64,000 bases of DNA from Geitlerinema sp. PCC 7407. GTDB taxonomy: Bacteria; Cyanobacteriota; Cyanobacteriia; PCC-7407. Below are positions 38,960 through 63,357 of the stretch, piece by piece. The stretch covers positions 732,501-796,500 of the forward strand of contig NC_019703.1 in the NCBI RefSeq assembly GCF_000317045.1, read 5' to 3'. The translations under genes and the position numbers were made by a program. A model generated the notes under the pieces. It did no database searches. It worked only from the letters and a program-made list of their open reading frames with translations, and was not told where the DNA came from. Positions within the stretch are counted from its first letter, which is position 1. Each line of letters opens with the position of its first letter.

Positions 38960-39301
38960 ATGCGACTGTTGGTTCAACTGCTGGGCTTCGGGCTGATGCT
39001 GCTGGGGCTGTACTACCTGGGCAAAAATATTTTCTTCACCACCTCCGTGAGCCCCTACTGGTGGCGCGGCATTGCGGCGGATCTGTCGGTGCTCTCCCTC
39101 ACCTTCGGCGTCGCCATGCTCGCCATCTTGCCCCGCAGCGCCAAGACCCTGGGTTTTGTGTGCATCGCCTTTGGCATTTTGATGGTGATCGTCAGTAGCC
39201 GAGCGATTTTGACCCCCATGAGCCTGTGGCAGTTTGTGATCTCTCTGGGCTCCTTTGTCTTCGGCTTCCGGATGATGCTAACGGGGCGGCTGCCGGTCTG
39301 A
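38960..39301 (+). CDS. Small integral membrane protein
   Basis: A 113-residue product from ATG 38960 (MRLLVQLLGFGLMLLGLYYL) with four hydrophobic segments (about 2-20, 33-52, 57-75 and 82-105). It has no signal peptide cleavage site or catalytic motif. The extra 27 codons of a longer frame are not membrane-like. Its last 24 bases overlap the convergent SGNH gene. Function unknown. Confidence 0.75.
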   Translation: MRLLVQLLGFGLMLLGLYYLGKNIFFTTSVSPYWWRGIAADLSVLSLTFGVAMLAILPRSAKTLGFVCIAFGILMVIVSSRAILTPMSLWQFVISLGSFVFGFRMMLTGRLPV

Positions 39302-40462
39302 GGCCGGGCGGGGCTGCTGGGCGATCGCCTTCGGCAAGTCCAGGCTTTGGACAAACTCAAACACCCCGGGCCGCTGGTCCTGCCAAGCTGCGCGCTGGCG
39401 GCGAATGTCCCTCAGGTGGGCCTCGACGGTCTGCGGCGTGACCCAGACCCCAAAGTCCGCCGGAATCTGGGGATTGGCGACGCCGAACAGGCGATCGAGC
39501 ACCCGGTCGCCGACGGTGCTGCGATAGTGGGAGCTGTCCCAGTAGTTCACCATGGTGGCGCTCACGGGCTCCATGGTGACGCTGTTGTAGCCCGAAAAGT
39601 CCCACACCGGCGTGATGGCCACGACTTGGCGCTTCCAGTCCTCAAACACCGGCCACAGCCCCGCCGCCCGTAGCCCTTCCCACTGGACCGCGTGGGAGGG
39701 GGAAATGAACACCTTCAGGTCAATGTTGTGGGAGCGACACAGGTCCGCGATCGCCCGCAGGTCTTCTAGGCGCGCCTCAGAAAGCTGGTAGCGTCCGTAG
39801 TACTCCTCACTTTCCAGGAAACCCCGGATCGACTGGGCAAACTTTTGGGGGATCGGTTCGTCGGTCTGGTTGCCGTAGATGTAGCGAAAGCCGTCGGGCC
39901 GGTAGAGATAGTAAGCTTCGCCCTCGACGTTGGCCCCCAGGGTGCGGCGGCTCGCCTCCAGGGACCCCAGGGAAACGGTGGTGCTCAGCAGGTCCCGCGG
40001 CCAGAGGGTGCGGCGATCGAGGCGCTCTTCGCTAAAGTCCGGCGCCGTGACCTTGTGGGTGTTGAACATAAAAAAGTCCACCCCCAAAACGACCGTCCGC
40101 AGGTCTGGCTGATTGGCGATCGCGTGCTCCAGATAGCGCCGCACCTCGTAGGTGTTGGGACCGACCAGGCCGAGGTTGTAGGCGGGCTGGTGGTCGGCCA
40201 GGGCGGGATGCTGGGGGTCAAGGCCGAGCTCGGTGCGAGAGGTGCCCAAAAAGACGGTTTTGGGCCGAATTCGAGTAATATCAGCCGCTTTGAACAGGCG
40301 CACATGGTTAAACTTCTCGGGGCGCAGACGATTGAGCCCAGGAACGTCGGGGCTGTCGAGGACCCCGAAGGGATCCATCAACCCATTCACAGCCCCGACG
40401 GTTAGCACACCGGGTATCACCAAGCCCAACAAGACGCGATTAAAGCGCTGATGCGTTCCCAT
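39278..40462 (-). CDS. SGNH-hydrolase-like protein (AlgX/DltD type)
   Basis: A 394-residue protein with an N-terminal hydrophobic anchor (about 10-28), then FLGTSRTELGLDPQHP as the SGNH block I (Ser in GTSR) and WDSSHYRSTVGDR holding Asp and His of block V near residue 320. This arrangement is shared by AlgX/AlgJ, DltD and related proteins that transfer or remove acetyl groups on exported polysaccharides. The catalytic triad call is from motifs only. It lies 26 bases downstream of the 976-residue RTX/SGNH protein on the same strand, suggesting a common pathway. Confidence 0.8.
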   Translation of the reverse strand: MGTHQRFNRVLLGLVIPGVLTVGAVNGLMDPFGVLDSPDVPGLNRLRPEKFNHVRLFKAADITRIRPKTVFLGTSRTELGLDPQHPALADHQPAYNLGLVGPNTYEVRRYLEHAIANQPDLRTVVLGVDFFMFNTHKVTAPDFSEERLDRRTLWPRDLLSTTVSLGSLEASRRTLGANVEGEAYYLYRPDGFRYIYGNQTDEPIPQKFAQSIRGFLESEEYYGRYQLSEARLEDLRAIADLCRSHNIDLKVFISPSHAVQWEGLRAAGLWPVFEDWKRQVVAITPVWDFSGYNSVTMEPVSATMVNYWDSSHYRSTVGDRVLDRLFGVANPQIPADFGVWVTPQTVEAHLRDIRRQRAAWQDQRPGVFEFVQSLDLPKAIAQQPRPASDRQPPR

Positions 40463-40487: not shown

Positions 40488-43418
40488 CTAAACGATCACG
40501 AAGGAGCTGGCATTGAGGCTGCTGGACTGGACGCCGCTGAGGGTGGCCAGGAGCTCATCGGTGTTGTAGACGCGGATCAGGGTACCGCTGCCGCTGCTGG
40601 AGGGGGCGATCGCCAACTGATCGTAGCGAAGTCCACCGCCCAGCCCCAGGCGATCGCTGCCCACCTCGAAGTCCAGCACCGCCTCAGCCCCGCTGCCAGC
40701 CCTCAGCACAAAGGTATCGGCCCCGCTGCCGCCGAGTAGGGTGTCGAGGCCGCCGCGCCCATCGATCCAGTCGTTGCCCGCGCCGCCTTCGATCCGGTTG
40801 CTGCTCGCGTTTCCCAAGAGGCGATCGCCGTAGGCCGTGCCCACCAGGTTTTCGACGCCCGTCAGCGTATCGCGTCCCGCCTTGACGTCCAGCAGCGCGT
40901 CGCGCCAGACCTCGGCCATTTTGGTGTAGCCGCTGGTGCTGAGATGGAGATTGTCAAAGGACAAGTCGCTGTACTGGATCTGGCTAAACATGTCCACAAA
41001 GGTGACGTTGGCGCCCTGGGCCGCCTTTTGGGACACCATGCCCGGAATCGTGGCGTTGAAGGCCTCAACCTGGGCAGGGTCTCCGGTTCGGTTGATCGGC
41101 GGGATCGAGGCGACCAACAGGTTCGCGCTGGGCAGTCGCTGGGTGACTTTGTCGATCAGCTGGCTGAGGCGATCGGGGGCCGTGCTGAGCTGATAGTCTT
41201 GCAGCACGTCGTTGGTGCCGATCATCAACAAGATCGTGTCGGGCTTGTAGGTGTCGAGCCAGCCGTTGACGCTGCTAGAAATCTGGTCGATTCGCCAGCC
41301 GCCATGCCCTTCGTGATCGCGATCGAAGGTGCTGGGGCCGTCGGTCTGGGAGCCCACAAAGTCCACATCAAAGCGATCGCCCGCCGTCAAAAAGCTCCAC
41401 AGATTGTCCCGGTAGCCCGCAGTGTCCCATTCCTTGCCGCGGGTGTTGGAGTCGCCGAGGGGCATGATCCGGTGGGTGCGATCGCCCGTCGAGAAGTAGC
41501 GCACGACGCTGCCCGCCGCCAGATCCGCCTCAATGCGGTTATTCATCCAGGCGTAGCTGGCGGTGTCCACGCCGCTGCCGCCGTCCAGCAGGTTGTTGCC
41601 GTCCTTGCCGATCAAAACATCGTTGCCGCCCAGCCCCTGAATCACGCTGCTGACGCTGTTGCCCGTCAGAGTTTCGCTGGCGCTGGTGCCGGTGATATTG
41701 GTGGGCGGCAGTGGGGTCACCGGCACCAGCTCGATGTAGTCAAAGCGAGCAAACTCGGACTGGTCCACGGCTCCCGCCAGGGTCAAGGTGTCGCCGGTAT
41801 TGATTTGGACTGCTGAGGCGATCGTGCGGGTCGTGCGAGTCTGGGACGTGACGCCACCGTTGCCCCGATTTTCGTCAAAGGTCCAGCGGTACTGGGTGCC
41901 GCCCACGGTCAAAGACGCCGGCGATCGCCCGTCATTTTCGTCGAAGTAGCCTACGACCACGTCATAGGTACCGCTGGCGCCCGCGAAAACCTGGGTGGCG
42001 GTGCCCTGGGTGCTGGTGCCCTTGTAGAGCGTGATGCCCTGGCCGCCGGAGGCCGGGGACTGGGCCTCTGTCCGGAAGCCGCTGAGGGTCATGGCCTCCG
42101 CTTCGTAGCGAATGGGCGAGCCGGTGGGCGCTGGGTTCGGGGCGGGGGCGGTGTCGTTGTCGGCGATGGTCAGCGTGGCGCTGGTTTGGCTGCCCAGGGT
42201 GGCGCCATTGGTCGGGTTGCTGAGCTGAAGATTGACCGTCTCCGCGCTCTCCACAGTAGTGTCGTCCACGATGGGCAAGAAAACCGTTTTGCTGGTTTCG
42301 CCCGCCGCGAAGGTGACAACCAGGGGATTGCTAGTGTAGTCGCTGCCCGCGATCGCCGTTCCGCCGCTGGGGGTCAGGGTGACGCTGGCGCTGCCGTCGC
42401 TGCCGCCGCTCCGCACCACGGTGATGGCCGCGCCCGTGGTCGTGCCCTCGGTGACGCCAAAGCTGGCGCTGCTGAGGCCAAAGCTGCCCACGCTCGGCGG
42501 TGGCGTGCTGCCGCCCACAGGCACCAGCTCGATGTAGTCGAAGCGGGCAAACTCGGACTGGTCCACGGCTCCCGCCAGGGTCAGAGTGTCGCCGGTGTTG
42601 ATCTGAATCCCGGAGGCCACTGTGCGGGTCGTGCGGGTCTGGGACGTGACGCCGCCGTTGCCTCGATTTTCGTCAAAGGTCCAGCGGTACTGGGTGCCGC
42701 CCACGGTCAGAGACGCAGGCGATCGCCCGTCATTTTCGTCGAAGTAGCCTACGACCACGTCATAGGTGCCGCTAGCGCCCGCGAAAACCTGGGTGGCGGT
42801 GCCCTGGGTGCTGGTGCCCTTGTAGAGCGTGATGCCCTGGCCGCCGGAGGCCGGGGACTGGGCCTCCACCCGGAAGCCGCTGAGGGTCATGGCCTCCGCT
42901 TCGTAGCGAATGGGTGAGCTGCTGATAGCCGGTTCTGGGGTAGGCGTGGGGCTGGGTTCGGGTGTTGGCTCTGGGCTGGGTTCGGGGCTGGGTTCGGGCG
43001 CTGGGCCGCTGGCGCTGACAAACTCGATGTAGTCGAAGCGGGCAAACTCTGCTTGGTCGACTTGACCGGCCAGGGTGATGGGGTCGCCATTGCGCAGGGT
43101 CACGCCCGTGGCCAGGGTCCGGGTGGCGCGAGTTTGGCTGGTGACGCCGCCGTTTCCGAGATTTTGATCAAAAACCCAGCTGTACTGGGTGCCGCCCACC
43201 GTGACGGACACCGGCGATCGCCCGTCGTTTTCGTCGAAGTAGCCCACCACGATGTCATACACACCATCGCTGCCGGTGAAGGCCGAGGTCGCGGTGCCCT
43301 GGGTGCCGCTGGCCTGATAGAGACCGATGATTTTTTCCCCAGACGCAGGCGATCGCCCCGACTCGATCACGAACCCTTGCAGGCTAAAGTCCTCTGCCTC
43401 CATCCGAATGACCGCCAT
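40488..43418 (-). CDS. RTX protein with CBM-like modules, Calx-beta and a nested CE3-like SGNH esterase
   Basis: A 976-residue protein without a signal peptide, typical of type I (RTX) secretion. Order: three carbohydrate-binding-like beta-sandwich modules (residues 1-135, 168-300, 434-567; YFDENDGRSP-S-TVGGTQY and FARFDYIE in each), a Pro/Glu linker (140-163), a Calx-beta domain (310-423), an RTX half (574-640, GLGGNDVLIGKDGNNLLDGG), an SGNH esterase (645-845: Ser657 in PLGDSNTRG, Asn736 in GTND, Asp822 and His825 in DNLHLS), then the second RTX half (850-905). The SGNH core resembles CE3 acetyl-xylan esterases. I infer secreted deacetylation of a surface polysaccharide. Confidence 0.85.
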   Translation of the reverse strand: MAVIRMEAEDFSLQGFVIESGRSPASGEKIIGLYQASGTQGTATSAFTGSDGVYDIVVGYFDENDGRSPVSVTVGGTQYSWVFDQNLGNGGVTSQTRATRTLATGVTLRNGDPITLAGQVDQAEFARFDYIEFVSASGPAPEPSPEPSPEPTPEPSPTPTPEPAISSSPIRYEAEAMTLSGFRVEAQSPASGGQGITLYKGTSTQGTATQVFAGASGTYDVVVGYFDENDGRSPASLTVGGTQYRWTFDENRGNGGVTSQTRTTRTVASGIQINTGDTLTLAGAVDQSEFARFDYIELVPVGGSTPPPSVGSFGLSSASFGVTEGTTTGAAITVVRSGGSDGSASVTLTPSGGTAIAGSDYTSNPLVVTFAAGETSKTVFLPIVDDTTVESAETVNLQLSNPTNGATLGSQTSATLTIADNDTAPAPNPAPTGSPIRYEAEAMTLSGFRTEAQSPASGGQGITLYKGTSTQGTATQVFAGASGTYDVVVGYFDENDGRSPASLTVGGTQYRWTFDENRGNGGVTSQTRTTRTIASAVQINTGDTLTLAGAVDQSEFARFDYIELVPVTPLPPTNITGTSASETLTGNSVSSVIQGLGGNDVLIGKDGNNLLDGGSGVDTASYAWMNNRIEADLAAGSVVRYFSTGDRTHRIMPLGDSNTRGKEWDTAGYRDNLWSFLTAGDRFDVDFVGSQTDGPSTFDRDHEGHGGWRIDQISSSVNGWLDTYKPDTILLMIGTNDVLQDYQLSTAPDRLSQLIDKVTQRLPSANLLVASIPPINRTGDPAQVEAFNATIPGMVSQKAAQGANVTFVDMFSQIQYSDLSFDNLHLSTSGYTKMAEVWRDALLDVKAGRDTLTGVENLVGTAYGDRLLGNASSNRIEGGAGNDWIDGRGGLDTLLGGSGADTFVLRAGSGAEAVLDFEVGSDRLGLGGGLRYDQLAIAPSSSGSGTLIRVYNTDELLATLSGVQSSSLNASSFVIV
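41718..42113 (-). repeat. CBM-like module copy (third)
   Basis: Encodes residues about 436-567. Nearly identical at DNA level to 42519-42917, with only scattered differences, so a recent intragenic duplication or gene conversion is likely. Confidence 0.85.
42519..42917 (-). repeat. CBM-like module copy (second)
   Basis: Encodes residues 168-300, the partner of the copy at 41718-42113. The first module (residues 1-135) is more diverged. Confidence 0.85.
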
Positions 43419-43593
43419 GATCCAACCTCTCTCGCCTGTGTATTAGTGCTGAGATTGCCCCAGCGCTCTCCGGGGACATCAAAATTTCTCAGCCACAGCC
43501 TATACAGAGCCCCTAGAGAGCGACTACGGTATTTGCGTAATCTTGATGAAGGCTTTTTGGAATCCCCGTATTTTTGCGGAAAATATAAAGAAA

Positions 43594-43641
43594 CCAATGG
43601 CTGATCTAGCACGATTGAGTCCGGCCAGATCAGCCATCGGT
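43594..43641 (-). terminator. Hairpin between the two RTX genes
   Basis: ATGGCTGATCT pairs with AGATCAGCCAT (11 bp, extended by three more pairs after one mismatch) around a 19-base loop. On the minus strand a T-rich stretch follows (TTTCTTTATATTTT). It suggests separate transcription of the two RTX genes. Confidence 0.75.
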
Positions 43642-43692
43642 TCTCTATATTTCCGAACAGAGCGTCAGTCAGCGATCGCCAGAAGCCTTGCC

Positions 43693-46600
43693 CTAGGCAA
43701 TGATGGTGATCTGCTCCGGCGTCAGGATGGGCGAGCCCGTCAAAGTAGCCAGGGTCACTGCACCTGCGCTGCCCGTGCCGTCGGGGTCATAGCGCAGCAC
43801 CCCGCCGTCGTAGAGGAAGTTCGCGCTGGTCCCCAGGGGCGTTGTGCCATTGACCAAAACTCCGGTAGCCGAGGCTGCATCCAGGCTCAGGCGGGTCCCC
43901 GCCACCAGGCCGCCGCCAAAGGCCGACGCCGAGATATACAGCCGATCGTCGTCCGCAAAGTCCGTGATCGTGTCGCCCCGGTGGCTGGGCGATCGATACA
44001 CAAACACATCGGCGCCGCCATTGCCCGTCAGCACATCACTGCCTGCGCCGCCTTCGAGAACGTTGACGCCCGCATTGCCAGTGATGTTGTCGTTGTAGGC
44101 CGAGCCCACGACGTTCTCGATGCTGCTGAGGCTGTCTTGGCTCTCGCCGAGGGCCGCAAACCAGCTATTGCTCAGGACCTGGTAGCTGGCCGCCGTCAGG
44201 TGAATCTGGTCTCCCGACAGGCTCGATCGGGTAAAGGTGCTGCTGCCATCGACAAAGGACACTTTCTTGCCCTGCTGCACCTTGTCGGCGACCAGGCTGG
44301 GCACCATGGCATTAAAGGCTGCGGCGTTCTGGCGCGACAGCGTGCCGCTGCTTGCTTGGCCCGAGGGCGGCACGGAGGAGACCAGGATGTGCGAGTTGGG
44401 AGAGACCGCTAGCACGCTGTCGATCAGGGTGCTCAGGCGATCGCGGGCAACCCCGGCACCGGCCCCTTGCAGCAGGTCATTGGTCCCCGCCATCAGCAAC
44501 ACATAGTTGGGCCGGGAGCTGTTCAAGGTCGCTCGAATCGCCCCGCCAGTGGTGCGCCCGTTCAGCTGATCGATGCGCTCGCCTCGATAGCCTTCGTGCT
44601 GGTCGTCAAAGGGGCGACCCCCAGGCGTTACCAGCGGGCCTGGGGCAGTGTCGGTCCCTGTCCTGAGGGAGCCCACGAAATTGATCAGCACATTGCGATT
44701 GGCAAAGGCGTCCTGGAGCAGGGGCCGATAGCCGCCGCTGTTGGTGTCTTCATTCAGGGTGCTGCTGCGGTTGATCACGCCGTAGGTCATGGAGTCGCCT
44801 AGCGGCATCAGGCTGCTGTTATTGGCGATCAGGTTGCGCGTGGCGGTGCCGCTGGCCAGATTGACGGTCATGGCGCTGGTGGCCTGGGCATAGCTGACGG
44901 TGTCGCTGCCAGCGCCGCCGTTGAGGGTGTTGTTACCGCCGCTGCTCCAGATTGTGTCGTTGCCTGCACCGGCGTTGATGACGTCGTTGCCGAGGCCGCC
45001 GTCCATCGTGTCGTCGCGATCGCTGCCGGTCAGGGTGTTGTTGTTGGAGTCGCCTCGAATCACGCGCGTTGGGACAAACTCGATGTAGTCGACCCGGGAG
45101 AACTCGCCGCCATTGTTGTTTCTGGCGCTGACGCCGCGAAGGGTGACGGTGTCATCACCATCGAGGTACAGGCCGCGAACGGTCCGGGTCGTGAAGTTAG
45201 CAGATTCTGGGACGCCGCTGCCAGCGGTTTGGTTGAGGTCCCATGTTTCCACCGTGACGCCGTTCACCTGAACAGCGAGCTTCGAGACGCCGTCGGTCTC
45301 GTCGAAGTGGGCCACCACGAGGTCGTAGTAGCCAGCGGTGCCGGTGAAGGTGGTGCTGGCGGTGCCGATCTGGCCGTCGATGCTGCCTCGGAGACCGAGG
45401 CCGATGTATTTGCCGCCAGAGGCGAAAGAGGCGCTGGTTGTCCCTGCGGGCTCGACGATGAAGTCGCCGCCAAGGGTGAGGTTTTCGGCTTCGATGCGCG
45501 TGGCGTTTCCGCTGTTGGCGAGGGGCTGGGTGGGGGTCTGGACGGCGACTTGGAAGGTGCCCAGGGAGCCTGCGACGACGGCGTTGCCGCTGGTGTCGAG
45601 GACCTGGTCAGCGGCGATCGCCACTTGATAGGTGCCGTTGTCCTTGGGGGACCACTGGCCGGCTGGGGCGGTGACGCGATAGGTGGCGGTGCGGGGCGTG
45701 CCGTCTCCAGCGGTGTCCACGCTGACGAGCTGGGCATTTTGGCTAAAGCCGTTGGGGCCGGTGACCACGACGTCGCTGCTGTCTAGGCTGCTGGCGTCGA
45801 GGGCGATGTTGTCGGTGAAGGTGACCGTAAAGGTGTGGGTGGTGCCGTTGACGACGTCGTTGGTGGTCAGGCTGGCGGTGGGCGGGATCTGCTCGGGCAC
45901 ATTGACCTGGAAGCTGCCCAAAGATCCGGCGGTGACGGCGTTGCCGCTGGTGTCGCGGACCTGGTCAGCGGCGATCGCCACCTGATAGGTGCCGTTGTCG
46001 CCAAAGTCCCAGCTGCCTCCCGGGGCGCTGATCCGGTAGGTCGCGCTGCGGGGCGTGCCATTGCCTGCTGGATTCACGCTGACGAACTGGGCATTTTGGC
46101 TAAAGCCGTTGGGACCGGTGACCACAACGTCGCTGCCATCAAGGGTGTCAACATCCATCCCGGCATTGTCGGTGAAGGTGACGGTGAAGGTCTGCTCGGT
46201 GGTGCCGACGGTGGTGATGTCGGCGGCCTTCAGCGTCGCGGCGGGAGCCTGGGTATCCGGCGCATTGACCTCAAAGGAGCCCAAAGCGCCCCCGGAAACC
46301 GCATTGCCGCTGGTGTCGCGGACCTGGTTAGCGGCGATCGCCACTTGATAGGTGCCATTGTCGTCAAAGTCCCAGCTGCCTCCCGGGGCGGTGATTCGGT
46401 AGGTTGCCGTTTTGGGCGTGCCATTGCCTGCTGGATTCACGCTGACGAACTGGGCATTTTGGCTAAAGCCATTGGGGCCGGTCACCAAAAGGTCGCTGCC
46501 ATCGAGGGTCGCAACGTCGATGCCTGCATTGTCTGCGAAGGTCACCGTCAGGGTTTGGCTGGTTGCTCCCTCGCTGGTGACGTCGGTGACGCTCAGGGTT

Positions 46601-48003
46601 GCGGTGGGGCTCTGGCTGTCCGGCACGCTCACCTGAAACGAACCCAGAGTGCCCGCAGCCACGGCGTTCCCGTTCACGTCGCGGACCTGATTGGCGGCGA
46701 TCGCCACCTGATAGGCCCCATTGTCCTCGACGCTCCAGCTCCCCCCCGGCGCGGTGATGCGGTAGGTTGCCGTGCGAGGAGTCCCATTGCCCGCCGCATT
46801 CACGCTGACGAGCTGAGCCCGCTGCGAAAAGCCATTGGGACCAGTCACCAGCACATCGTTGCTGTCGAGGGTCGCCGCATCAATCCCCACATTGTCGGCG
46901 AAGGTGATCGTAAAGGTTTGAGTCTCGCCCCCTTCGGCAGTGATATTGCTGGCGGTCAGCTGGGCCGTTGGCCGCTGGGTATCGGGCACCGTCACCCGAA
47001 AAGACCCCAGAGATCCGGCTGCGACGGCATTGCCGCTGGTGTCGCGGACCTGATTGGCGGCGATCGCCACCTGGTAGGTGCCGTTGTCGCCAAAGTCCCA
47101 GCTCCCCCCCGGCGCGGTGATCCGGTAGGTGGCGGTGCGCGGCGTGCCGTTACCCGCCGCATTCACGCTGACGAGCTGAGCCCGCTGCGAAAAACCGTTG
47201 GGGCCAGTCACCAGCACATCATTGCTGTCGAGGGTCGCGGCATTAATCCCGCGATTGTCGGCAAAGGTGACCGTAAAGGTTTGGGTCGCGCTGCCCGCCG
47301 TGGTGATGTTTCCGGCGCTCAGGCTAGCCGTCGGCGCGATCGTGTCGGCAGGCTGCAGCGGCGGGGTGCTGCCGGGAGGCCGGGTCAGGCGGCCCTCAAA
47401 CTGGCCAAACAGCAGGTAGTGCTGAATGGCGCTGGTAAAAAATCCTGCCGTGACCGCTGCCTGGACGTCGCCGTAGGTCTGGAGATAAAAAGCGCTGTCA
47501 AAACTGCTGCTAAAGCTGCGGCCCTCGGTTTGGCCGATGAAAACAAAGTGCTGCCACGCGCTGGCAACCAGGCCCTGGCTGATGCCGGTCTGAACATCCG
47601 TGTGGGTACGGAGATAGTAGGCAGTATCAAATTGGGCAAAGGGCGATCGCCCCTCAAACTGACCAAACCGGACAAAGTGATCGAAACCGCTGACGAATTT
47701 GCCCTGCTGAATGGCGATCGCTACATCCGTATTTTGCTGAAGATAATATTTTTCATCGAAGAAGGGCGTCGGCGATCGCCCCTCTTTGTAGCCAAAGAGC
47801 AAGAAATGCTCTTCAGCGCTCTTAAATGAGCCTTGCTCGATGGCAATCTTCACATCCAGATTGCGGCTAAGATAAAAAGATTCACTAAAAATAGTGCTAG
47901 AAATTTTTCCGCCAAAAAGAGACTCAAAGGTGATCGAGACCTTAGTGGTTTCTGTTTGAGTCTGGGTACGGCCCAAAACTAAATCTCTATAGGAAATATT
48001 CAT
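43693..48003 (-). CDS. Large RTX protein with FD-repeats, five Ig-like repeats, CBM-like module and nested SGNH esterase
   Basis: A 1436-residue protein. Residues 38-205: four ~42-residue repeats (FDEKYYLQQNTDV...HF--FGQFEGRSP), common in cyanobacterial RTX proteins. Residues 220-823: five ~121-residue Ig-like repeats (pattern TFADN-GI--ATLDS-DVLVTGPNGFSQ). Residues 830-978: a CBM-like module. Residues 980-1050: RTX nonapeptides. Residues 1060-1290: a CE3-like SGNH esterase (Ser1071 in PLGDSMTYG, Asn1175 in GTND, Asp1265 and His1268). Residues 1296-1350: the second RTX half. No Sec signal peptide; type I secretion is expected but the exporter is not here. The layout parallels the 976-residue neighbour. 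Confidence 0.85.
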   Translation of the reverse strand: MNISYRDLVLGRTQTQTETTKVSITFESLFGGKISSTIFSESFYLSRNLDVKIAIEQGSFKSAEEHFLLFGYKEGRSPTPFFDEKYYLQQNTDVAIAIQQGKFVSGFDHFVRFGQFEGRSPFAQFDTAYYLRTHTDVQTGISQGLVASAWQHFVFIGQTEGRSFSSSFDSAFYLQTYGDVQAAVTAGFFTSAIQHYLLFGQFEGRLTRPPGSTPPLQPADTIAPTASLSAGNITTAGSATQTFTVTFADNRGINAATLDSNDVLVTGPNGFSQRAQLVSVNAAGNGTPRTATYRITAPGGSWDFGDNGTYQVAIAANQVRDTSGNAVAAGSLGSFRVTVPDTQRPTAQLTASNITAEGGETQTFTITFADNVGIDAATLDSNDVLVTGPNGFSQRAQLVSVNAAGNGTPRTATYRITAPGGSWSVEDNGAYQVAIAANQVRDVNGNAVAAGTLGSFQVSVPDSQSPTATLSVTDVTSEGATSQTLTVTFADNAGIDVATLDGSDLLVTGPNGFSQNAQFVSVNPAGNGTPKTATYRITAPGGSWDFDDNGTYQVAIAANQVRDTSGNAVSGGALGSFEVNAPDTQAPAATLKAADITTVGTTEQTFTVTFTDNAGMDVDTLDGSDVVVTGPNGFSQNAQFVSVNPAGNGTPRSATYRISAPGGSWDFGDNGTYQVAIAADQVRDTSGNAVTAGSLGSFQVNVPEQIPPTASLTTNDVVNGTTHTFTVTFTDNIALDASSLDSSDVVVTGPNGFSQNAQLVSVDTAGDGTPRTATYRVTAPAGQWSPKDNGTYQVAIAADQVLDTSGNAVVAGSLGTFQVAVQTPTQPLANSGNATRIEAENLTLGGDFIVEPAGTTSASFASGGKYIGLGLRGSIDGQIGTASTTFTGTAGYYDLVVAHFDETDGVSKLAVQVNGVTVETWDLNQTAGSGVPESANFTTRTVRGLYLDGDDTVTLRGVSARNNNGGEFSRVDYIEFVPTRVIRGDSNNNTLTGSDRDDTMDGGLGNDVINAGAGNDTIWSSGGNNTLNGGAGSDTVSYAQATSAMTVNLASGTATRNLIANNSSLMPLGDSMTYGVINRSSTLNEDTNSGGYRPLLQDAFANRNVLINFVGSLRTGTDTAPGPLVTPGGRPFDDQHEGYRGERIDQLNGRTTGGAIRATLNSSRPNYVLLMAGTNDLLQGAGAGVARDRLSTLIDSVLAVSPNSHILVSSVPPSGQASSGTLSRQNAAAFNAMVPSLVADKVQQGKKVSFVDGSSTFTRSSLSGDQIHLTAASYQVLSNSWFAALGESQDSLSSIENVVGSAYNDNITGNAGVNVLEGGAGSDVLTGNGGADVFVYRSPSHRGDTITDFADDDRLYISASAFGGGLVAGTRLSLDAASATGVLVNGTTPLGTSANFLYDGGVLRYDPDGTGSAGAVTLATLTGSPILTPEQITIIA
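45535..47346 (-). repeat. Five tandem Ig-like repeat units
   Basis: Each unit is about 121 codons (363 bases). Units begin at residues 220, 341, 462, 584 and 704. The first two share long identical stretches (LVTGPNGFSQRAQLVSVNAA), while the fifth is the most diverged. This implies stepwise expansion. Confidence 0.9.
47389..47892 (-). repeat. Four N-terminal FDxxYYL repeats
   Basis: Four ~42-residue units (residues 38-205) with consensus FD--YYL--N-DV--AI--G-F-SA--HF--FGQ-EGRSP. They may anchor the protein to the cell surface; that is inference. Confidence 0.8.
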
Positions 48004-55873: not shown

Positions 55874-57880
55874 CTAGGTCCGCGCCCGCAGCTCGATGGA
55901 TTCGAGATTCTTGAGCAGGGCGATCGCCGCGAAATAGGCCTCCTCGGTGAGCTTTTCCTGCTCCTCGGGGGTGTCTGCCATGCCGTCGACGATCAGCTTG
56001 AGGGAGCCCAGCATGCCGTTGAGCTGGGTGCGTGCCTGGTACGACAGCTCCATGACGGCGGTTTCGCGTGCAGCCCGAATCGCCTCGGTGTTGTCGCCGG
56101 AGAACTGCATCCGGTGCAGGCGCGTGTAGTAGCCGTTGCGCTGCAATAGCTCGTGGTGGTTGCCGATTTCGACCACGCGTCCCTGCTCCATTACGGCGAT
56201 CTGGTCGGCTTTTTGGATGGTTGAGAGGCGGTGGGCGATCACCAAAATGGTGCGGTTGCGGCTCAGCTCGTCGATGGCCTCTTGGACTAGGCGCTCGGAG
56301 ACGGTGTCTAGAGCGCTGGTGGCTTCATCGAGGATCAAGATCTCGGGGTTTCGCAGGAGGGCGCGGGCGATCGCGATCCGCTGGCGCTGGCCCCCCGACA
56401 GCAAAATGCCGCGATCGCCCAGCTTGGTGTCAAAGCCCTGGGGCAGCTTTTGAATAAACTCGTAGGCGTTGGCCCGCTTGGCCGCCTCGATAATGCTGGC
56501 CTCCGTCGCATCGTCCGCCGCGTAGGCGATGTTGTTGCGCACCGTGTCATTAAACAAAAAGGTGTCCTGGCTCACGATGCCCATGCCCCGCCGCAGCGAT
56601 CGCAGCTCGTAGTCCCGCAGGTCCACCCCATCGATCAGAATGCGGCCCTCCTGGGGGTCATAAAAGCGCGGCAGCAGATCCGCCAGGGTCGACTTGCCGG
56701 CCCCCGACGCGCCCACCAGCGCCAGGGTCGTCCCCCGCGGCAGGTCCAGCGTCACGTCCTGGAGCACCCAGCCCTCCCCCGAGGGGTACTGAAAAGACAG
56801 ATTTTCAAACCGGATGCCCTCCCGGATCGACTCGTAGGGAACCTGACCATTGGCCATAAACGGCTTGTTGTCCCGGCGCAGCAGGTCCGCCACCACCTCC
56901 GTGCTAGAGCTAAAGTTGGCAAACTGGCTGCGAATATTGTTTAGGCTGCTGATCAGGGGCAGGGTCCGAAACAGCACAAACAGGTAGGTCAGCAGCACCG
57001 TCGAGAGGGACACCAGCTGCTCGGCAAAAAACACCCGGCCCAAAAACACAATGGCGAACACCGTGATAATGCCCGTCATTTCGTTAATGGGGCCGATCGC
57101 CGCATAGTTGGCCGACGACTTAAAGTCAATCTTCTCGCGCTCCTGGATCAGCGTCTCGACCTTGGCGTATTCCCGGTCTTCGGTGCCGCTGGCGCGAATG
57201 GTGCGAATGCCGTTGAGCACCTCGATCAGCCGTGCCGAATAGACTCCCGAAACCTTGGAGAGAATGCGGCCAAACTCCCGCGCTCGCCCAATAAAAATCT
57301 GGTTGATCACCGCCATCACCGCCAGCAGCACCGACGAAGCGAGGGTGAGCTGCCAAGAAATCGACAGCAGCAGGGCCACAAACACCAAAATCGTGATGGT
57401 GGTGGTCACCATGTCGATCATGGAGCGGATGCCGGCGGCGGTGCGATTGACCTGCTCGCCTACCCGGTTGACCAAGTCCCCAATGCGAATCTGGGCATAG
57501 AAGGCCAGATCGACCTCGAGAAGCAGCCGCAGCGCTTCCTTGCGCAGGTCCCGCGTCAGCCGCCGCGACAGAAAGCTGGAGGTGATGACGCTGGCGTAGG
57601 TGGCTAGGTTTTTGAGGCCGATCGCTAGCAGCACCATCCCCGTCAGCAGGGCCAGCCGCACATCGGGCTCAAAGCCATCAAAAAAGGCCATGGACTTTTG
57701 GATCACCGGGGGAGCGCCCTGGAGATTGATCTCTTGGCCCAGGAAGCTCAGCAAAATCGGCACCACCAGCGTGACGCTGACCCCGTTGAAGATGGCTCCC
57801 GAGAAGCCCAGCACCATGGTGAGCCCGATCAAAGCGGGCGATCGCGCAGCGAATTTGAGCAGAAGCTGATTGGGGGACAT
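55874..57880 (-). CDS. HepA-like ABC exporter with C-terminal HisKA-like tail
   Basis: A 668-residue half-transporter with an N-terminal six-helix membrane domain (about 1-310) and an ATPase (Walker A VGASGAGKSTL, signature LSGGQRQR, Walker B ILILDEATSALD, H-loop IAHRLST). It resembles MsbA/HepA exporters; HepA in Anabaena is needed for the heterocyst envelope polysaccharide. The last ~59 residues (ELSYQARTQLNGMLGSLKL...) look like a degenerate histidine-kinase dimerisation helix pair, with Tyr in place of the phospho-acceptor His. It lies 75 bases downstream of glycosyltransferase genes on the same strand. ATG 57880 is chosen. Confidence 0.88.
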   Translation of the reverse strand: MSPNQLLLKFAARSPALIGLTMVLGFSGAIFNGVSVTLVVPILLSFLGQEINLQGAPPVIQKSMAFFDGFEPDVRLALLTGMVLLAIGLKNLATYASVITSSFLSRRLTRDLRKEALRLLLEVDLAFYAQIRIGDLVNRVGEQVNRTAAGIRSMIDMVTTTITILVFVALLLSISWQLTLASSVLLAVMAVINQIFIGRAREFGRILSKVSGVYSARLIEVLNGIRTIRASGTEDREYAKVETLIQEREKIDFKSSANYAAIGPINEMTGIITVFAIVFLGRVFFAEQLVSLSTVLLTYLFVLFRTLPLISSLNNIRSQFANFSSSTEVVADLLRRDNKPFMANGQVPYESIREGIRFENLSFQYPSGEGWVLQDVTLDLPRGTTLALVGASGAGKSTLADLLPRFYDPQEGRILIDGVDLRDYELRSLRRGMGIVSQDTFLFNDTVRNNIAYAADDATEASIIEAAKRANAYEFIQKLPQGFDTKLGDRGILLSGGQRQRIAIARALLRNPEILILDEATSALDTVSERLVQEAIDELSRNRTILVIAHRLSTIQKADQIAVMEQGRVVEIGNHHELLQRNGYYTRLHRMQFSGDNTEAIRAARETAVMELSYQARTQLNGMLGSLKLIVDGMADTPEEQEKLTEEAYFAAIALLKNLESIELRART

Positions 57881-57955
57881 AGGGTGCAATGACTCGTCGG
57901 ATAGGCGACTGACAACCAAGACAAACTCACCAAACAAAACAAACTGGCGATCGCG

Positions 57956-59134
57956 CTAGGACTGCCAGCGAGCCAGCAGCTGCGCCAAAATATCGGCCAT
58001 GACCTCCACACTATAGTGTTCCACGCACCGGCGACGCGCCTGCTGACCGCGCGCTAGCGCCCCCTCCCACTCCCCGAAGATCGTTTGCAGCGTCGCCGCG
58101 ATCTGATTCGGCGCGCTAGGGGGCACCAGGTACCCCGCCTCCCCCAAAATCTGGGGAATATCGCCCACCGTCGTGGCCAGGATCGGCTTGGCCATGGCCA
58201 TGCCGTCGGTGAGCTTGAGGGGAAACTGGGCCAGGGCGTTGGGGTGGTTGCGCTGAGGCACCACCACCACGTGGGCCGCCGCCACGACCTCGGGCATCTG
58301 CTCGGCGGGCACCGGCGGCAGCTGGACAATCCAGCGGCCCCAGCGCGATCGCAGCTGCTCGTCGTAGTCGTCGTAGGGACTGCCGCCCACGATTACCAGC
58401 CGCAGGTCCGGGATATCGAGCTGGTCGAGGGCCACCAGCACATCTTCAATTCCCTTGTAGGGACGGGGGGCACCCGGAAACATTAAGACACGGTAACCGG
58501 CCAGCCCGTAGCGATCGCGGCTGGCCTGGGCATCGTAGCGATCGGGGTCAAAGCGGTGGACGTCTTTGCCATTGGGCAGGTAAACGCCCCCAAATCGGGC
58601 CTGCATAAACTGCGTGTGGGTCGTCACTGCGTCGGCCTGGGCGACCCAGCCCTCGGCCCACTGGAGGTACAGCGGATGGTCGGGATTGCGCAGAGCGCCG
58701 TTGGCCTTGAGCAGATCCCGCGCCAGCTGCCGGGGCGAGGGCCGATAGGCAAAGTTTTCGCCGCCGTGGAGTCCCAGCTCCCAGTCGTCGATGTCCAGCA
58801 GGACCGGTCGGCCCCGCAGGCGGCGGTGCAGCAGCGCCAGACCAAAGCTGGTGGCCTTGAGCTTGTAGGCGTAGATCAGGTCGCCGTCGAGGTGCTGGAG
58901 GAGCTGGCGAGCGCTGGTGAGAAAGGGCGGGTAGGGGCGCGCTGGCCAGGCGGCGATGGGGATGCCGTCGATCTGAGAGCGGGTGGGCGCGCTGACCTCG
59001 CGATTGAAGCCGAGGATTTCGACGCTGTGGCCGAGCTGGCGCAGGGCCTGACTGAGCAAAAAGGGCCGCACGGCACCCCCCCAGCGCCCGACGCCGCTTT
59101 TGGAAAGATCGCTGACGACCAGAGAAATTTTCAC
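57956..59134 (-). CDS. GT4-family glycosyltransferase
   Basis: A ~392-residue GT-B enzyme. The N-terminal domain has a KSGVGRWGGAVRPFLLSQAL motif. The C-terminal domain has MFPGAPRPYKGIEDVLVAL, a PNALAQFPLKLTDGMAMAKPILAT donor-site segment and VGDIPQILGEAGYLV. The GT4 E-x7-E donor motif is not classical here (KLTDGMAMAKPI), so the donor is uncertain. GTG at 59134 is assumed; a TTG at 59152 would overlap the upstream gene. It probably builds the glycan exported by the HepA-like transporter. Confidence 0.85.
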   Translation of the reverse strand: MKISLVVSDLSKSGVGRWGGAVRPFLLSQALRQLGHSVEILGFNREVSAPTRSQIDGIPIAAWPARPYPPFLTSARQLLQHLDGDLIYAYKLKATSFGLALLHRRLRGRPVLLDIDDWELGLHGGENFAYRPSPRQLARDLLKANGALRNPDHPLYLQWAEGWVAQADAVTTHTQFMQARFGGVYLPNGKDVHRFDPDRYDAQASRDRYGLAGYRVLMFPGAPRPYKGIEDVLVALDQLDIPDLRLVIVGGSPYDDYDEQLRSRWGRWIVQLPPVPAEQMPEVVAAAHVVVVPQRNHPNALAQFPLKLTDGMAMAKPILATTVGDIPQILGEAGYLVPPSAPNQIAATLQTIFGEWEGALARGQQARRRCVEHYSVEVMADILAQLLARWQS

Positions 59135-59141
59135 GGGGGTT

Positions 59142-60383
59142 CTAGGACTCAAAAAGGTGGCGCTGGAGCAGCAGAGGCACCGTCCGCAGGGCGGCGACGG
59201 GGAGCGATCGCGGGGGCGTTTCGGCGGCGACCTCGGCGATCAGGTGCCGGAGGCGATCGCCCGCCTGCCGCCACGAAAAATCTTGCTCCGCTCGCTGGCG
59301 GCCCTGGCTGCCGAGGCGCTGGCGCAGGTCCGGATCGGCCAGCAGTCGCCCCACCGCGATCGCCACAGCCTGCGGGTCTTCAGGGTCGACGAGATAGCCG
59401 GTTTCTCCGTCCACTACCGCGTCGGGGACGCCGCCGCTGCGGCCCGCCACCACCGGCAGGCCGCAGGCGTTGGCCTCCAGGTAGACAATGCCGAAGCCCT
59501 CAACCTCGTGGCTGCCCGCAGGCTGGCGGCTGATCATGGCAAACACCTGAGCGGCATAGTAGTACGCCAACAGGTCCTCGTCCGATACGGCCCCGGCAAA
59601 AATCACCGAGTTCTGGAGCCCCAGCTCGTCCCGCAGGGCCTCAAGGCGCGATCGCTCCGGGCCCTCGCCCACGATCAGGTACACCGCCTCAGGGCACTGC
59701 GCCAAAATCTGGCCCATGGCCCGCATCATCACGTCGCAGCCCTTGCGCTCGATCAGCCGCGTCACCGTCAAGATCACGGGGCGATCGCCCAGCCCGTGAC
59801 GCTGGCGCAAGGCCGCTAGCTGCTCCGCTGCTGGCGCTGTGCTCCAGGCCTGGGCATCCACGCCCGGGCACAGCCGCACGATCTTGCTGGGGGTCACTCC
59901 GACGTCCCGCAGCAGCTCCCCGGTGTAGTGGCTGTTGCACACGACCCGACTGGCCCCCTCTAGGGCTCGCTGCATCAGCGGCGCGGTTTTGGGGTCAGCC
60001 GCGTGCTCCAGGATTTCTTTACCGTGGGTGTAGACCACGTAGGGCAGCCCCAGGGTCTGGGCCAGGAGCCAGCCCGAGATGCCGTCCGGCAGCACCAGGC
60101 CGCAGTGGACAACGCGAATCCGGTGCTGGCGGCACAGCGGCACCAGCGATCGCAGCCATTTGGCGCGGCCCGGTCGCCCCCAGCGAAACCACTTGTCACT
60201 CAGCGGCCCCACCCGCACCACTGGCAGCGCGTACTGCTGGTCAAACTCGGCGTAGTCGCCCGTCTGGTCCGGCGTCACGATCACCGCCTGGGGAGCCAGC
60301 TGGCTAAACAAGTGATGGTAATAATTTTCGCGGCCCCCGACCCGCGGCAGGTAGGTGTGGGTAATCAGCAGAGAGTTGCCCAT
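59142..60383 (-). CDS. GT4-family glycosyltransferase (PimB-like)
   Basis: A ~413-residue GT-B enzyme with a glycine loop (YLPRVGGRENYYHHL), YTHGKEI, the donor-binding TVTRLIERKGCDVMM and the EGFGIVYLEANACGLPVVAG motif containing the conserved E-x7-E. It resembles mannosyltransferases of the PimB type; the sugar is unknown. The start is ATG 60383 (MGNSLLITHTYLP), with ATG 60413 as the alternative. The upstream asparagine-synthase-like gene ends 46 bases before. Confidence 0.88.
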   Translation of the reverse strand: MGNSLLITHTYLPRVGGRENYYHHLFSQLAPQAVIVTPDQTGDYAEFDQQYALPVVRVGPLSDKWFRWGRPGRAKWLRSLVPLCRQHRIRVVHCGLVLPDGISGWLLAQTLGLPYVVYTHGKEILEHAADPKTAPLMQRALEGASRVVCNSHYTGELLRDVGVTPSKIVRLCPGVDAQAWSTAPAAEQLAALRQRHGLGDRPVILTVTRLIERKGCDVMMRAMGQILAQCPEAVYLIVGEGPERSRLEALRDELGLQNSVIFAGAVSDEDLLAYYYAAQVFAMISRQPAGSHEVEGFGIVYLEANACGLPVVAGRSGGVPDAVVDGETGYLVDPEDPQAVAIAVGRLLADPDLRQRLGSQGRQRAEQDFSWRQAGDRLRHLIAEVAAETPPRSLPVAALRTVPLLLQRHLFES

Positions 60384-60429
60384 GGGAGATTCTGGCGAAG
60401 ACGGCCTGATCATTAGCGCTTGTCCGTCG

Positions 60430-61968
60430 TTATTTCAGATGCTGTAGGTGCTGAATCCAGAACACCATGGTCACCAAGAAGGCAACGGCGGGAGTCCGCT
60501 TTTGGGTGGTTTGGTGGTCTGTTAGCACGGCCTCGATGCCCTCTGGAGAAATCAGCTCCGACAGCAGGTCCGCGTGCGATCGCACAAAATCCGCGATCGC
60601 CGGGCTGGCGAACCACTCAGGATAGCGAGCGTAGCCCACGATGGGGTAGCGGTAGCTCTTGGGGTGCCAGTAGCGGAAGGGCGCCCGCACCGCAGTGCGC
60701 ACGGCCTTGCCCTGCTCTGGGAAGTCCAGCAGGCGGGGATAGTTCTTTTGGAGGGCGTAGCGGTGCCAGTTGTGGCCCAGTTTCCACGAGCGGGACAGGT
60801 TCCACACCGTAGCGACCCAGTCGCGCTCTAGGAACGGCACCCGCCACGCCACGCTTTCGCTGTAGAGCTTCATGCCATTGCCCATAAAGTTGCGCACCCG
60901 CTGCTCCAGATAGAGCCGATCGAGCCCCGGCAAAAAGCTGTGGTGACACAGCTCTACCAGCGTTTCGGCGGTGGCGCTGCGGGCCTCTGGTCCCAGGCGT
61001 TCTCCCAAAGCTGGATTCAGAAATCCCAGCTCAGCAGGGGTAAAAATCGGATTGACTTTCTGCTGGCAGACGGTGCGCAGGCTTTGTTCGGGCGATCGCC
61101 AGCTCTGGTACAGCGCATGGATGCCCCGGTCGAAATACACCGTCTTGGCCCAGGCCCCATTGGTGCCGACAAAAAACGGCTGCTGCGGATCGAAGCCTGC
61201 TGCCCGAGTGTACAGGTAGGTGTGCCAGTGGCGAGCGGTCTTGGTGCCGTTGGTGAGGGCGCTGATCAGCGGGCCGTAGGCCAGGTAGTCCTCGATGCGC
61301 AGCTGGACCCGCCGCAGCTCCAGGCCCAGGGCGCTGGCGATCTGCTGAGCGATGATCACGTCTGTGCTGTCCTCGAACCCCATCGTCACCAGGGACGGCC
61401 GATAGCCCACCTTGAGGGCGCTGGCCAGGAGCACGCGGGAGTCAAACCCGCCAGAAATGGAGACCACCGGATCTTTGCCGCCCCACTCCTGCACGCTGCG
61501 GTTGAGGGCGTCGAGGGCGAGGCGGGGCGTCGCTTTGGCGCGGGGATGGAGATCTTCCCAGGCCAGGGTCGTGCGCTGGAGGGCGCCATTGCGGAAGTGC
61601 AGGACGCTGCGCTCGGGCACCCGCTCGACGGCGGGGTGGAGGGTGCGGTTTTCGAGGGGATGGTCGAAGATGGCCAGCTCGGCCAGCGATCGCCAGTTCC
61701 ACTCCCAGGGCAGTTGCGCCTGCTTGAGCACGCCCAGGACCGTATCCCCGTGGAAAATGCGGCTGCCCTGGACGGTGTAGTAGTACTGACAAACCCCGTA
61801 GGCAGAGCTGATGAAGTAGCACTCGCCGGTCCGCTCCAGCACGATCAGGTATTCTCCGCGGAGGGTGATGAGGCTGGGGGCTCCTGCGCGCTCTAGCTGG
61901 GCCAAAATCTGCTCGCTGCTGAGATTGCAGTATCCCAAGACGCGAACGCGGAATATTTCCTCTACCAT
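60430..61968 (-). CDS. Asparagine-synthase-like protein without catalytic Cys
   Basis: A 512-residue product with an N-terminal class II amidotransferase-like domain (LRGEYLIVLERTGECYFISSAYGVCQYYY) and a C-terminal PP-loop (VVSISGGFDSRVLLASALK). Residue 2 is Val, so the Cys nucleophile used to release ammonia from glutamine is absent. Similar proteins occur in polysaccharide loci and in RiPP clusters (lasso peptide cyclase). No precursor peptide is recognisable. ATG 61968 (MVEEIFRVRVLGYC) is chosen over a 78-codon longer frame that runs through an intergenic region. Confidence 0.82.
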   Translation of the reverse strand: MVEEIFRVRVLGYCNLSSEQILAQLERAGAPSLITLRGEYLIVLERTGECYFISSAYGVCQYYYTVQGSRIFHGDTVLGVLKQAQLPWEWNWRSLAELAIFDHPLENRTLHPAVERVPERSVLHFRNGALQRTTLAWEDLHPRAKATPRLALDALNRSVQEWGGKDPVVSISGGFDSRVLLASALKVGYRPSLVTMGFEDSTDVIIAQQIASALGLELRRVQLRIEDYLAYGPLISALTNGTKTARHWHTYLYTRAAGFDPQQPFFVGTNGAWAKTVYFDRGIHALYQSWRSPEQSLRTVCQQKVNPIFTPAELGFLNPALGERLGPEARSATAETLVELCHHSFLPGLDRLYLEQRVRNFMGNGMKLYSESVAWRVPFLERDWVATVWNLSRSWKLGHNWHRYALQKNYPRLLDFPEQGKAVRTAVRAPFRYWHPKSYRYPIVGYARYPEWFASPAIADFVRSHADLLSELISPEGIEAVLTDHQTTQKRTPAVAFLVTMVFWIQHLQHLK

Positions 61969-62229
61969 GACGCCGCTAATTGATGGATGGGGGATAGATG
62001 GTGAACCAAAATCGTTCCAAAAACGGGACACCCAGGGAAATTTTGGTGGCCAATCCCTGGCTTTGGGAGCGGTGGGGCTGGTTGTCTTCCAGAATGCCCT
62101 GAATTGGGGGAGCGATCGCCCCTTGTCCGAATTTTCACGGGGAATTTTCCAAAATCCGCTGAGCAGGCAGTTTCCTAAAATGAAGAAGCTGAACGTGCCC
62201 ACCCCTTTGCGGACCTATTTTTGACGGCT

Positions 62230-63003
62230 ATGGAAGTGCTGCGTCTCCCGGCTCTGTCGGATAACTATATCTTTTTGCTCTACGACGCCTCCTCGGGCAC
62301 CGCTGCCGTGGTCGACCCTGCCGAGGCGGAGCCCGTTTTGGCCGAGCTCCGTCGCTTGGGGGCGCGTCTGGTGGCGATTTTCAATACCCACCACCACGGC
62401 GATCATGTGGGTGGCAATCGCCCGCTGCTGGCGGCCTTTCCGGAGGCGACGGTGTACGGCGGCGCGGAGGACCGGGGCCGGATTCCGGGCCAGAGCGTGT
62501 TCCTGGTGGAGGGCGATCGCGTGACCTTTGGGCAGCGCGAGGCAACGGTGCTGTTTGTGCCCGGTCACACCCGCGCCCACATCGCCTACTATTTCCCGCC
62601 CGCCGCAGCGGACCAGCCCGGCCATTTGTTTTGCGGCGACACGCTGTTTTCGGGGGGCTGCGGGCGGCTGTTTGAGGGGACGCCGGCCCAGATGGTGGAC
62701 TCCCTGAGCAAGCTGCGATCGCTCCCCGACCAGACCCAGGTGTGGTGCGCCCACGAGTACACCCTGAAAAATCTTCAGTTTGCCCTGACCGTCGAGGGCG
62801 GCAACGCCGACTTGCAGCGGCGCTGGGCCGAGGTCCAGGCAGCGCGCCAGCGCCAAGAGGCCACGATCCCGGCCTGGCTGGGGGTCGAGAAGCGCACCAA
62901 TCCCTTTTTGCGCTGGGATCTCCCGGCCCTCCAGACGGCTATGGCGGCCCAAGACGGCGTGCAAACCTTTAGCCGGCTGCGGGGCCGCAAGGATGTTTTT
63001 TAG
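62230..63003 (+). CDS. gloB: Hydroxyacylglutathione hydrolase (glyoxalase II)
   Basis: A 257-residue metallo-beta-lactamase-fold enzyme. It has the [10 protein letters not shown] motif, [28 protein letters not shown] and the [13 protein letters not shown] segment of the GloB family, with the C-terminal RTNPFLRW. It hydrolyses S-lactoylglutathione in methylglyoxal detoxification. ATG 62230 ([13 protein letters not shown]) is preferred over the TTG at 62221. Confidence 0.94.
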
Positions 63004-63357
63004 CCTGCTGGCGGTCTGAACGGGCGATCGCCCCTCCCGTGGCAAATAGACGCGCTGGTTGCGATCGCCTACCGCTTCTCGGTATTATGTACCATTGCGC
63101 TTACAGCGATTTTCACAGCGGCATCGGATCCACTCGGTGACGGTTTTGGCTGTCCTGCCGTTCGGGCCTCTGTCTACGGACTTCCTTCCAGAAGTGGAAA
63201 CGCTGTCAGTGAGCGCCCCCCATCGCGCTGTTTCCAGATTCCTGTCGCTCAGGCGTCAGCGATGGCTGCAACGTTGAGGCACAAACCCAAGGGCTGTAGG
63301 GGTTGCCAATAAGGCGGCCCCTTGAAGTACGCGCAGTAGAGAACCCGCAGGAAAGAC
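63004..63357. other. Gene-free stretch before rplI
   Basis: About 350 bases with no credible gene. It should hold the rplI promoter; a CAGGAAAGAC ribosome-binding site immediately precedes the ATG. Nothing else was recognised. Confidence 0.5.

What the first reader, a model, noticed from the sequence alone, without database searches (positions are those of the whole stretch)
40488..48003. CE3-like SGNH esterase domains nested inside RTX modules in two adjacent giant proteins
In both proteins the RTX stretch is interrupted at the same place: after the SYA...ADLAAG or VNLASG segment and before the DTLTGVENLVG or DSLSSIENVVG segment that normally follows at once. A complete SGNH esterase (Ser/Asn/Asp-His blocks all present) fills the gap. 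The RTX halves are recognisable on both sides, so this looks like domain insertion rather than end-to-end fusion. Calcium folding of the RTX could gate esterase activity after secretion. The rest of the architectures differ, so the nested cassette has been kept while flanking modules changed.
Basis: partly seen in the sequence, partly recalled or inferred. Interest (0 to 1): 0.72.

Follow-up and report, generated by a model that had tools for sequence, protein, structure and literature searches.

The report
Esterases inserted inside RTX beta-rolls
Two neighbouring secreted proteins of a cyanobacterium carry a sugar-esterase-type enzyme threaded through the joint of a calcium-binding RTX coil, an arrangement that recurs in many cyanobacteria and some alphaproteobacteria, is unnamed in the databases searched, and could be used to test how RTX proteins fold during export.

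Summary
Two minus-strand ORFs (976 and 1436 aa) each carry a complete CE3-type SGNH domain between two RTX halves. The insertion point is the RTX inter-block linker known from solved RTX structures: after the Tyr/antiparallel-strand element (SYA...EADL or TVNL) and before the (I/V)EN element. In 15 uninterrupted cyanobacterial linkers the two elements lie 11-13 residues apart; in the nested proteins, 200-260. AlphaFold2 folds the first cassette confidently (pLDDT 92.9, pTM 0.84); Foldseek matches its esterase to a CE3 enzyme.

A new test supports a roll that continues through the insert. In CyaA the linker Glu of (I/V)EN ligates Ca2+ of the block before it. Among 70 nested homologs, that Glu is present in 45/46 with an N-side roll and 3/24 without, while C-side roll positions are unchanged. 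Relatedness inflates the P value; about three supported independent co-losses, none opposed.

The layout is widespread (about 22 of 390 cyanobacterial genomes; Rhizobium, Sinorhizobium and Cereibacter plasmids) but I found no family model or paper naming it. A vWFA domain emerging from an RTX roll is published, so this is an enzymatic variant of a known kind. Ca2+ gating, T1SS export and deacetylation are inferences.

The parts
40488..43418 (-). Protein 1 (976 aa): three CBM35-like modules, Calx-beta, RTX N-half, SGNH esterase, RTX C-half and C-terminal tail
43693..48003 (-). Protein 2 (1436 aa): N-terminal repeats, five Ig-like repeats, CBM35-like module, RTX N-half, SGNH esterase, RTX C-half
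41523..41708 (-). Protein 1 RTX N-half with linker entry: Tyr622 and strand EADL 630-633
40899..41498 (-). Protein 1 SGNH/CE3 domain, residues 641-840; Ser657, Asn736, Asp822, His825
40704..40871 (-). Protein 1 linker exit (DTLTGVENLVG, Glu856) and RTX C-half
40491..40703 (-). Protein 1 C-terminal tail, presumed cap and type I secretion signal
   Evidence: inferred from position and sequence
44860..45066 (-). Protein 2 RTX N-half with linker entry: Tyr1038 and strand TVNL 1046-1049
44155..44838 (-). Protein 2 SGNH domain, residues 1056-1283; Ser1071, Asn1175, Asp1265, His1268
43954..44136 (-). Protein 2 linker exit (DSLSSIENVVG, Glu1296) and RTX C-half
41718..43310 (-). Span holding three CBM35-like modules of protein 1 (300-nt cores 41718-42017, 42516-42815, 43011-43310) and Calx-beta (42153-42491)
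45536..47281 (-). Five Ig-like repeats of protein 2, spacing about 363 nt
43565..43645 (-). Terminator-like hairpin followed by a T-rich run between protein 2 and protein 1; suggests they are separate transcripts
   Evidence: -40 kcal/mol, z -8.45

Best explanation
Both proteins are surface or matrix carbohydrate esterases. A CE3-type SGNH domain has been inserted into the exposed loop of an RTX inter-block linker, so it buds sideways from one calcium-bound beta-roll instead of sitting beside it. The linker still works across the insert: the entry strand packs in the roll and the exit Glu completes the last Ca2+ site of the N-side roll. After type I export, the C-terminal roll would fold first, then the esterase, and the N-side roll would close only once both linker ends meet. 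CBM35-like and Ig-like modules would hold the enzyme on an acetylated extracellular polysaccharide. Shown here: positions, catalytic blocks, conserved slot, linker residues, Glu/N-roll coupling, confident model. Inferred: T1SS export, order of folding, polysaccharide deacetylation.
For: Slot spacing 11-13 empty versus 200-260 filled. Linker definition from RTX crystal structures: Tyr/Phe plus antiparallel Val strand on entry, (I/V)EN on exit with Glu ligating Ca2+ of the preceding block, and one continuous core (PMC8486122). Across 18 cassettes the Glu is invariant and the Tyr nearly so. Glu present in 45/46 homologs with an N-side roll and 3/24 without (P 1.1e-13), while the C-roll Gly/Asp/Asn/hydrophobic positions (columns 0, 1, 5, 7, 9, 10, 14, 16, 18, 21, 23, 25, 27) do not differ; fully automatic classification 45/48 versus 3/22, P 3e-11. 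Independent pairs on supported branches: about 3 in the same direction, none opposed in nearly all pairings. AF2 pLDDT 92.9, pTM 0.84 for protein 1. Esterase domain matches CE3 2vpt, TM-score 0.86 by target length, 1.9 A, and by sequence E 1.4e-42. HlyD-type membrane fusion proteins above the curated cut-off and TolC-type outer membrane proteins elsewhere in the genome. CBM35-like modules. One nested relative follows an Acyl_transf_3 acyltransferase gene.
Against: No coordinates of the model were available, so a shared core was not seen; Foldseek alignments that span both rolls and two-block RTX structures superpose poorly (rmsd 16-21 A), which is ambiguous. The protein 2 model is weaker (pLDDT 80.2, pTM 0.67). 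The coupling P values ignore relatedness; the phylogenetic sign test is underpowered (median p 0.25). Two of 70 rows were reassigned by hand. Substrate and activity are unknown; T1SS genes are not in the window.
Confidence: 0.68

Rival explanations
1. Ordinary end-to-end shuffling: two independent RTX domains that happen to flank an SGNH domain, with no shared fold.
For: RTX domains are shuffled freely; closely related SGNH domains occur without RTX in other cyanobacteria; superpositions over both halves are poor.
Against: Each half lacks the other part of a linker, the cut is always at the same point, and the exit Glu is lost when the N-side roll is lost while the C-side roll stays intact. 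Several homologs keep the entry strand with no N-side roll, so the strand belongs with the C-side part.
Confidence: 0.13
2. The insertion is real but the layout is passive: a generic projecting slot for extracellular modules (like split domains of RTX adhesins), without any effect of Ca2+ on activity. This shares the anatomy of the best explanation and differs only in denying a functional role for the folding order.
For: RTX adhesins project ligand-binding domains from split domains, including a vWFA domain from the C-terminal RTX roll (PMC12077191); EDTA did not impair CE3 enzyme CtCes3-1 (PMC9487903); CBM modules are present.
Against: None direct; compatible with the same evidence as the best explanation except for the proposed folding order.
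Confidence: 0.45
3. The SGNH domain is a degenerate or non-catalytic binding module.
For: Protein 2 departs from the CE3 calcium loop (NFVG...DDQ instead of DFVG...DXD).
Against: All catalytic blocks are intact in both window proteins and S98, G148, N177, H266 are invariant in 18 cassettes.
Confidence: 0.07

Closest known systems
[quoted passage not shown]
   Same: A folded domain buds from within a C-terminal RTX roll, and the chain returns to finish the roll.
   Different: There the guest is a ligand-binding vWFA domain in a 5047-residue adhesin; here it is a catalytic CE3-type esterase. Whether the AhLap insertion uses the same linker loop was not tested.
CyaA RTX inter-block linkers (PMC8486122; 7rah, 7usl, 6sus)
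   Same: Same entry Tyr plus antiparallel strand and exit (I/V)EN; sequence alignments match the C-side segment to several CyaA blocks.
   Different: CyaA linkers hold only short loops. A two-residue insertion just after the linker Glu stops folding of the blocks before it (PMC10511787); here about 200 residues are tolerated just before the DTL..(I/V)EN segment.
Carbohydrate esterase family 3 (CtCes3-1, 2vpt; TcAE206, 5b5s)
   Same: Sequence, fold, catalytic blocks, and in protein 1 the DFVG calcium loop.
   Different: Those are stand-alone or end-to-end appended domains; here nested in RTX.
Family I.3 lipases (Pseudomonas MIS38 lipase, 2z8x)
   Same: Extracellular esterase with two RTX rolls, exported by T1SS.
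   Different: Catalytic domain is an alpha/beta hydrolase and lies before the rolls, not inside (from general knowledge and PMC6891781).

Membership tests
Carbohydrate esterase family 3 (CE3) | Block I GxSxT with catalytic Ser; Gly, Asn and DxxH blocks | tested here: met
   GDSNT and GDSMT; GTND; DNLH and DQIH
Carbohydrate esterase family 3 (CE3) | DFVGXnDXD calcium-loop motif (PMC9487903) | tested here: inconclusive
   Protein 1 DFVG...FDRD fits; protein 2 NFVG...FDDQ departs
Carbohydrate esterase family 3 (CE3) | Fold closest to solved CE3 enzymes | tested here: met
   2vpt TM-score 0.86 by target length, 42% identity; 5b5l/5b5s next; protein 1 only
Carbohydrate esterase family 3 (CE3) | Acetylesterase activity on acetylated carbohydrate | not testable with these tools
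   Needs an enzyme assay
RTX proteins | Tandem GGxGxDxUx nonapeptides | tested here: met
   PF00353 over cut-off in both proteins, both halves
RTX proteins | Type I secretion with uncleaved C-terminal signal | tested here: inconclusive
   RTX at the C-terminus, N-termini do not look like Sec signals (by eye, no predictor run), HlyD- and TolC-type genes elsewhere in the genome; export not shown
RTX inter-block linker (PMC8486122) | Entry Tyr/Phe plus antiparallel hydrophobic strand; exit (I/V)EN with Ca2+-ligating Glu | tested here: met
   Y622/E856 and Y1038/E1296; Glu invariant in 18 cassettes; Ca2+ ligation itself not testable here
Split-domain projection of RTX adhesins (PMC12077191) | Guest domain emerges from a host domain that completes its fold afterwards | tested here: inconclusive
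   Sequence layout and residue coupling fit; model coordinates could not be inspected

The most novel reading that the evidence does not exclude
The nested layout is an export checkpoint: because the exit Glu needed by the N-side roll lies beyond the esterase, the roll can be completed only after the enzyme has left the secretion channel and folded, so Ca2+-driven C-to-N folding assembles an active, projected enzyme only outside the cell.
Probability: 0.25. Interest if true: 0.7.

Novelty: new variant of a known kind. Interest (0 to 1): 0.52.

Why it matters
RTX linkers are thought to pass a folding signal from C- to N-terminus, and a two-residue insertion just past the linker Glu breaks that relay in CyaA. 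Here about 200 residues with their own fold sit in the linker of many natural proteins. This is a natural experiment on what the relay needs, it marks a loop that tolerates whole enzymes, and it gives an unnamed layout that annotation now splits into 'GDSL esterase' and 'calcium-binding protein'.

Tried and rejected
Recent tandem duplication of the two window genes: rejected, they fall in different subclades. Single origin of nesting: the nested SGNH domains are not one clade (p-AU 1e-16), but one gain with several losses remains possible, so the number of insertion events is open. Other domains in the same slot: none in the sampled loci or in the 60 listed rows of a plasmid search; those samples are small and the query was partly composite (its first part was typed by hand and not copied from one protein). 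Phage homologs: none. Solved relatives of the 394-aa neighbour: none. Empty-linker controls in the same genome: its large RTX proteins use another linker type, so controls came from other cyanobacteria.

Full report
What is there. Two adjacent minus-strand ORFs hold the reported features. Protein 1 (40488-43418) carries three CBM35-like modules, a Calx-beta domain, an RTX half, an SGNH domain (residues 641-840) and a second RTX half. Protein 2 (43693-48003) carries N-terminal repeats, five Ig-like repeats, one CBM35-like module, and the same RTX-SGNH-RTX cassette (SGNH 1056-1283). Catalytic blocks are intact in both. The esterase domain is CE3-like: 2vpt is the best PDB match by sequence (E 1.4e-42) and by fold (TM-score 0.86 by target length).

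The insertion site. Goldsmith et al. 2021 (PMC8486122) showed that RTX blocks of CyaA are joined by a conserved linker within a continuous beta-roll: an entry Tyr/Phe packing against an extra antiparallel strand, then a loop, then (I/V)EN, whose Glu ligates Ca2+ of the block before the linker. The window proteins show both elements, with the esterase between them: Tyr622/EADL and Glu856 in protein 1, Tyr1038/TVNL and Glu1296 in protein 2. In 15 uninterrupted linkers from other cyanobacterial RTX proteins the elements are 11-13 residues apart; in the nested proteins the distance is 200-260.

How common it is. An evenly drawn search of 390 cyanobacterial genomes found related SGNH domains in 55; by my reading of the flanks about 22 of the 390 hold at least one nested or partly degenerate cassette. 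More appear in order-level searches and in named genomes such as Symploca, Okeania and Laspinema. Alphaproteobacterial plasmids of Rhizobium sullae, Sinorhizobium sojae and Cereibacter carry the same layout, with the N-side roll reduced to one or two turns or less; these form a clade inside the cyanobacterial nested set. Many actinobacterial relatives carry the SGNH domain without RTX. Nested genes often lie side by side, as here, in several other genomes.

Is the roll continuous across the insert? AlphaFold2 gave a confident single model for the 417-residue cassette of protein 1 (pLDDT 92.9, pTM 0.84) and a weaker one for protein 2 (80.2, 0.67). Coordinates could not be inspected. I therefore used homologs. 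Some have lost the nonapeptides before the esterase but keep the entry strand. If the two halves form one linker, the exit Glu should matter only when an N-side roll exists. In 70 homologs the Glu is present in 45 of 46 with an N-side roll and 3 of 24 without (Fisher P 1.1e-13, two rows reassigned by hand; automatic classes 45/48 versus 3/22, P 3e-11). C-side roll positions (Gly, Asp, Asn, hydrophobic) are kept in both sets, so this is not general decay of the C-half; the neighbouring Ile/Val also weakens (46/46 versus 16/24). Sequences are related, so the P values are inflated; on well-supported branches about three independent pairs change together and almost none in opposition.

How it probably works. 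RTX proteins are exported C-terminus first and fold in Ca2+ from the C-terminal end (PMC8486122, PMC10511787). By inference, the C-side roll folds, the esterase folds, and the N-side roll is then completed by the exit Glu. The esterase would project from the roll and act on an extracellular acetylated glycan, held by CBM35-like modules. One Cereibacter relative follows an Acyl_transf_3 gene, in line with a role in acetyl turnover. The genome has HlyD-type proteins near other RTX genes at about 2.97 Mb and TolC-type proteins elsewhere. A strong terminator-like hairpin lies between protein 2 and protein 1 (z -8.45), so they are probably transcribed separately.

What is known. A vWFA domain emerging from an RTX roll in an Aeromonas adhesin is published (PMC12077191), so an RTX roll as a host for a guest domain is not new. 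I found no paper or family model describing an enzyme in this position; the paper library is open-access only, so this is weak negative evidence. The finding is a new variant of a known kind.

Noticed in passing
window 39278-40462 (-): A 394-aa ORF 25 nt downstream of protein 1 on the same strand, with GTSR and DSSH motifs that by eye suggest a distant SGNH/AlgX-like protein; no Pfam, NCBIfam or PDB sequence match. Possibly co-transcribed with protein 1.
   Followed up: partly
L341-L345 (also L075): Short SGNH proteins (274-334 aa) without RTX repeats that keep a remnant like AIADLEEK just before the esterase, in genomes that also hold nested copies; they look like products of RTX loss.
   Followed up: no
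L224 about 4001-4960: A family 16 glycosylhydrolase protein of a Rhodobacteraceae plasmid with a divergent SGNH domain after a strand-like LLIDLEAG and RTX-like repeats after it: possible nested case in another architecture.
   Followed up: no
window 55874-63045 (-): ABC exporter, two group 1 glycosyltransferases and an asparagine-synthase-like gene in a row, a possible polysaccharide cluster near the esterases.
   Followed up: no
L093: One cyanobacterial protein of 1419 aa carries three SGNH domains alternating with Calx-beta-like segments, without RTX.
   Followed up: no
window 45536-47281 (-) and 41718-42815 (-): Five Ig-like repeats of protein 2 are 74-85% identical in DNA, and two CBM35-like copies of protein 1 are 93% identical, suggesting recent internal duplication.
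   Followed up: no
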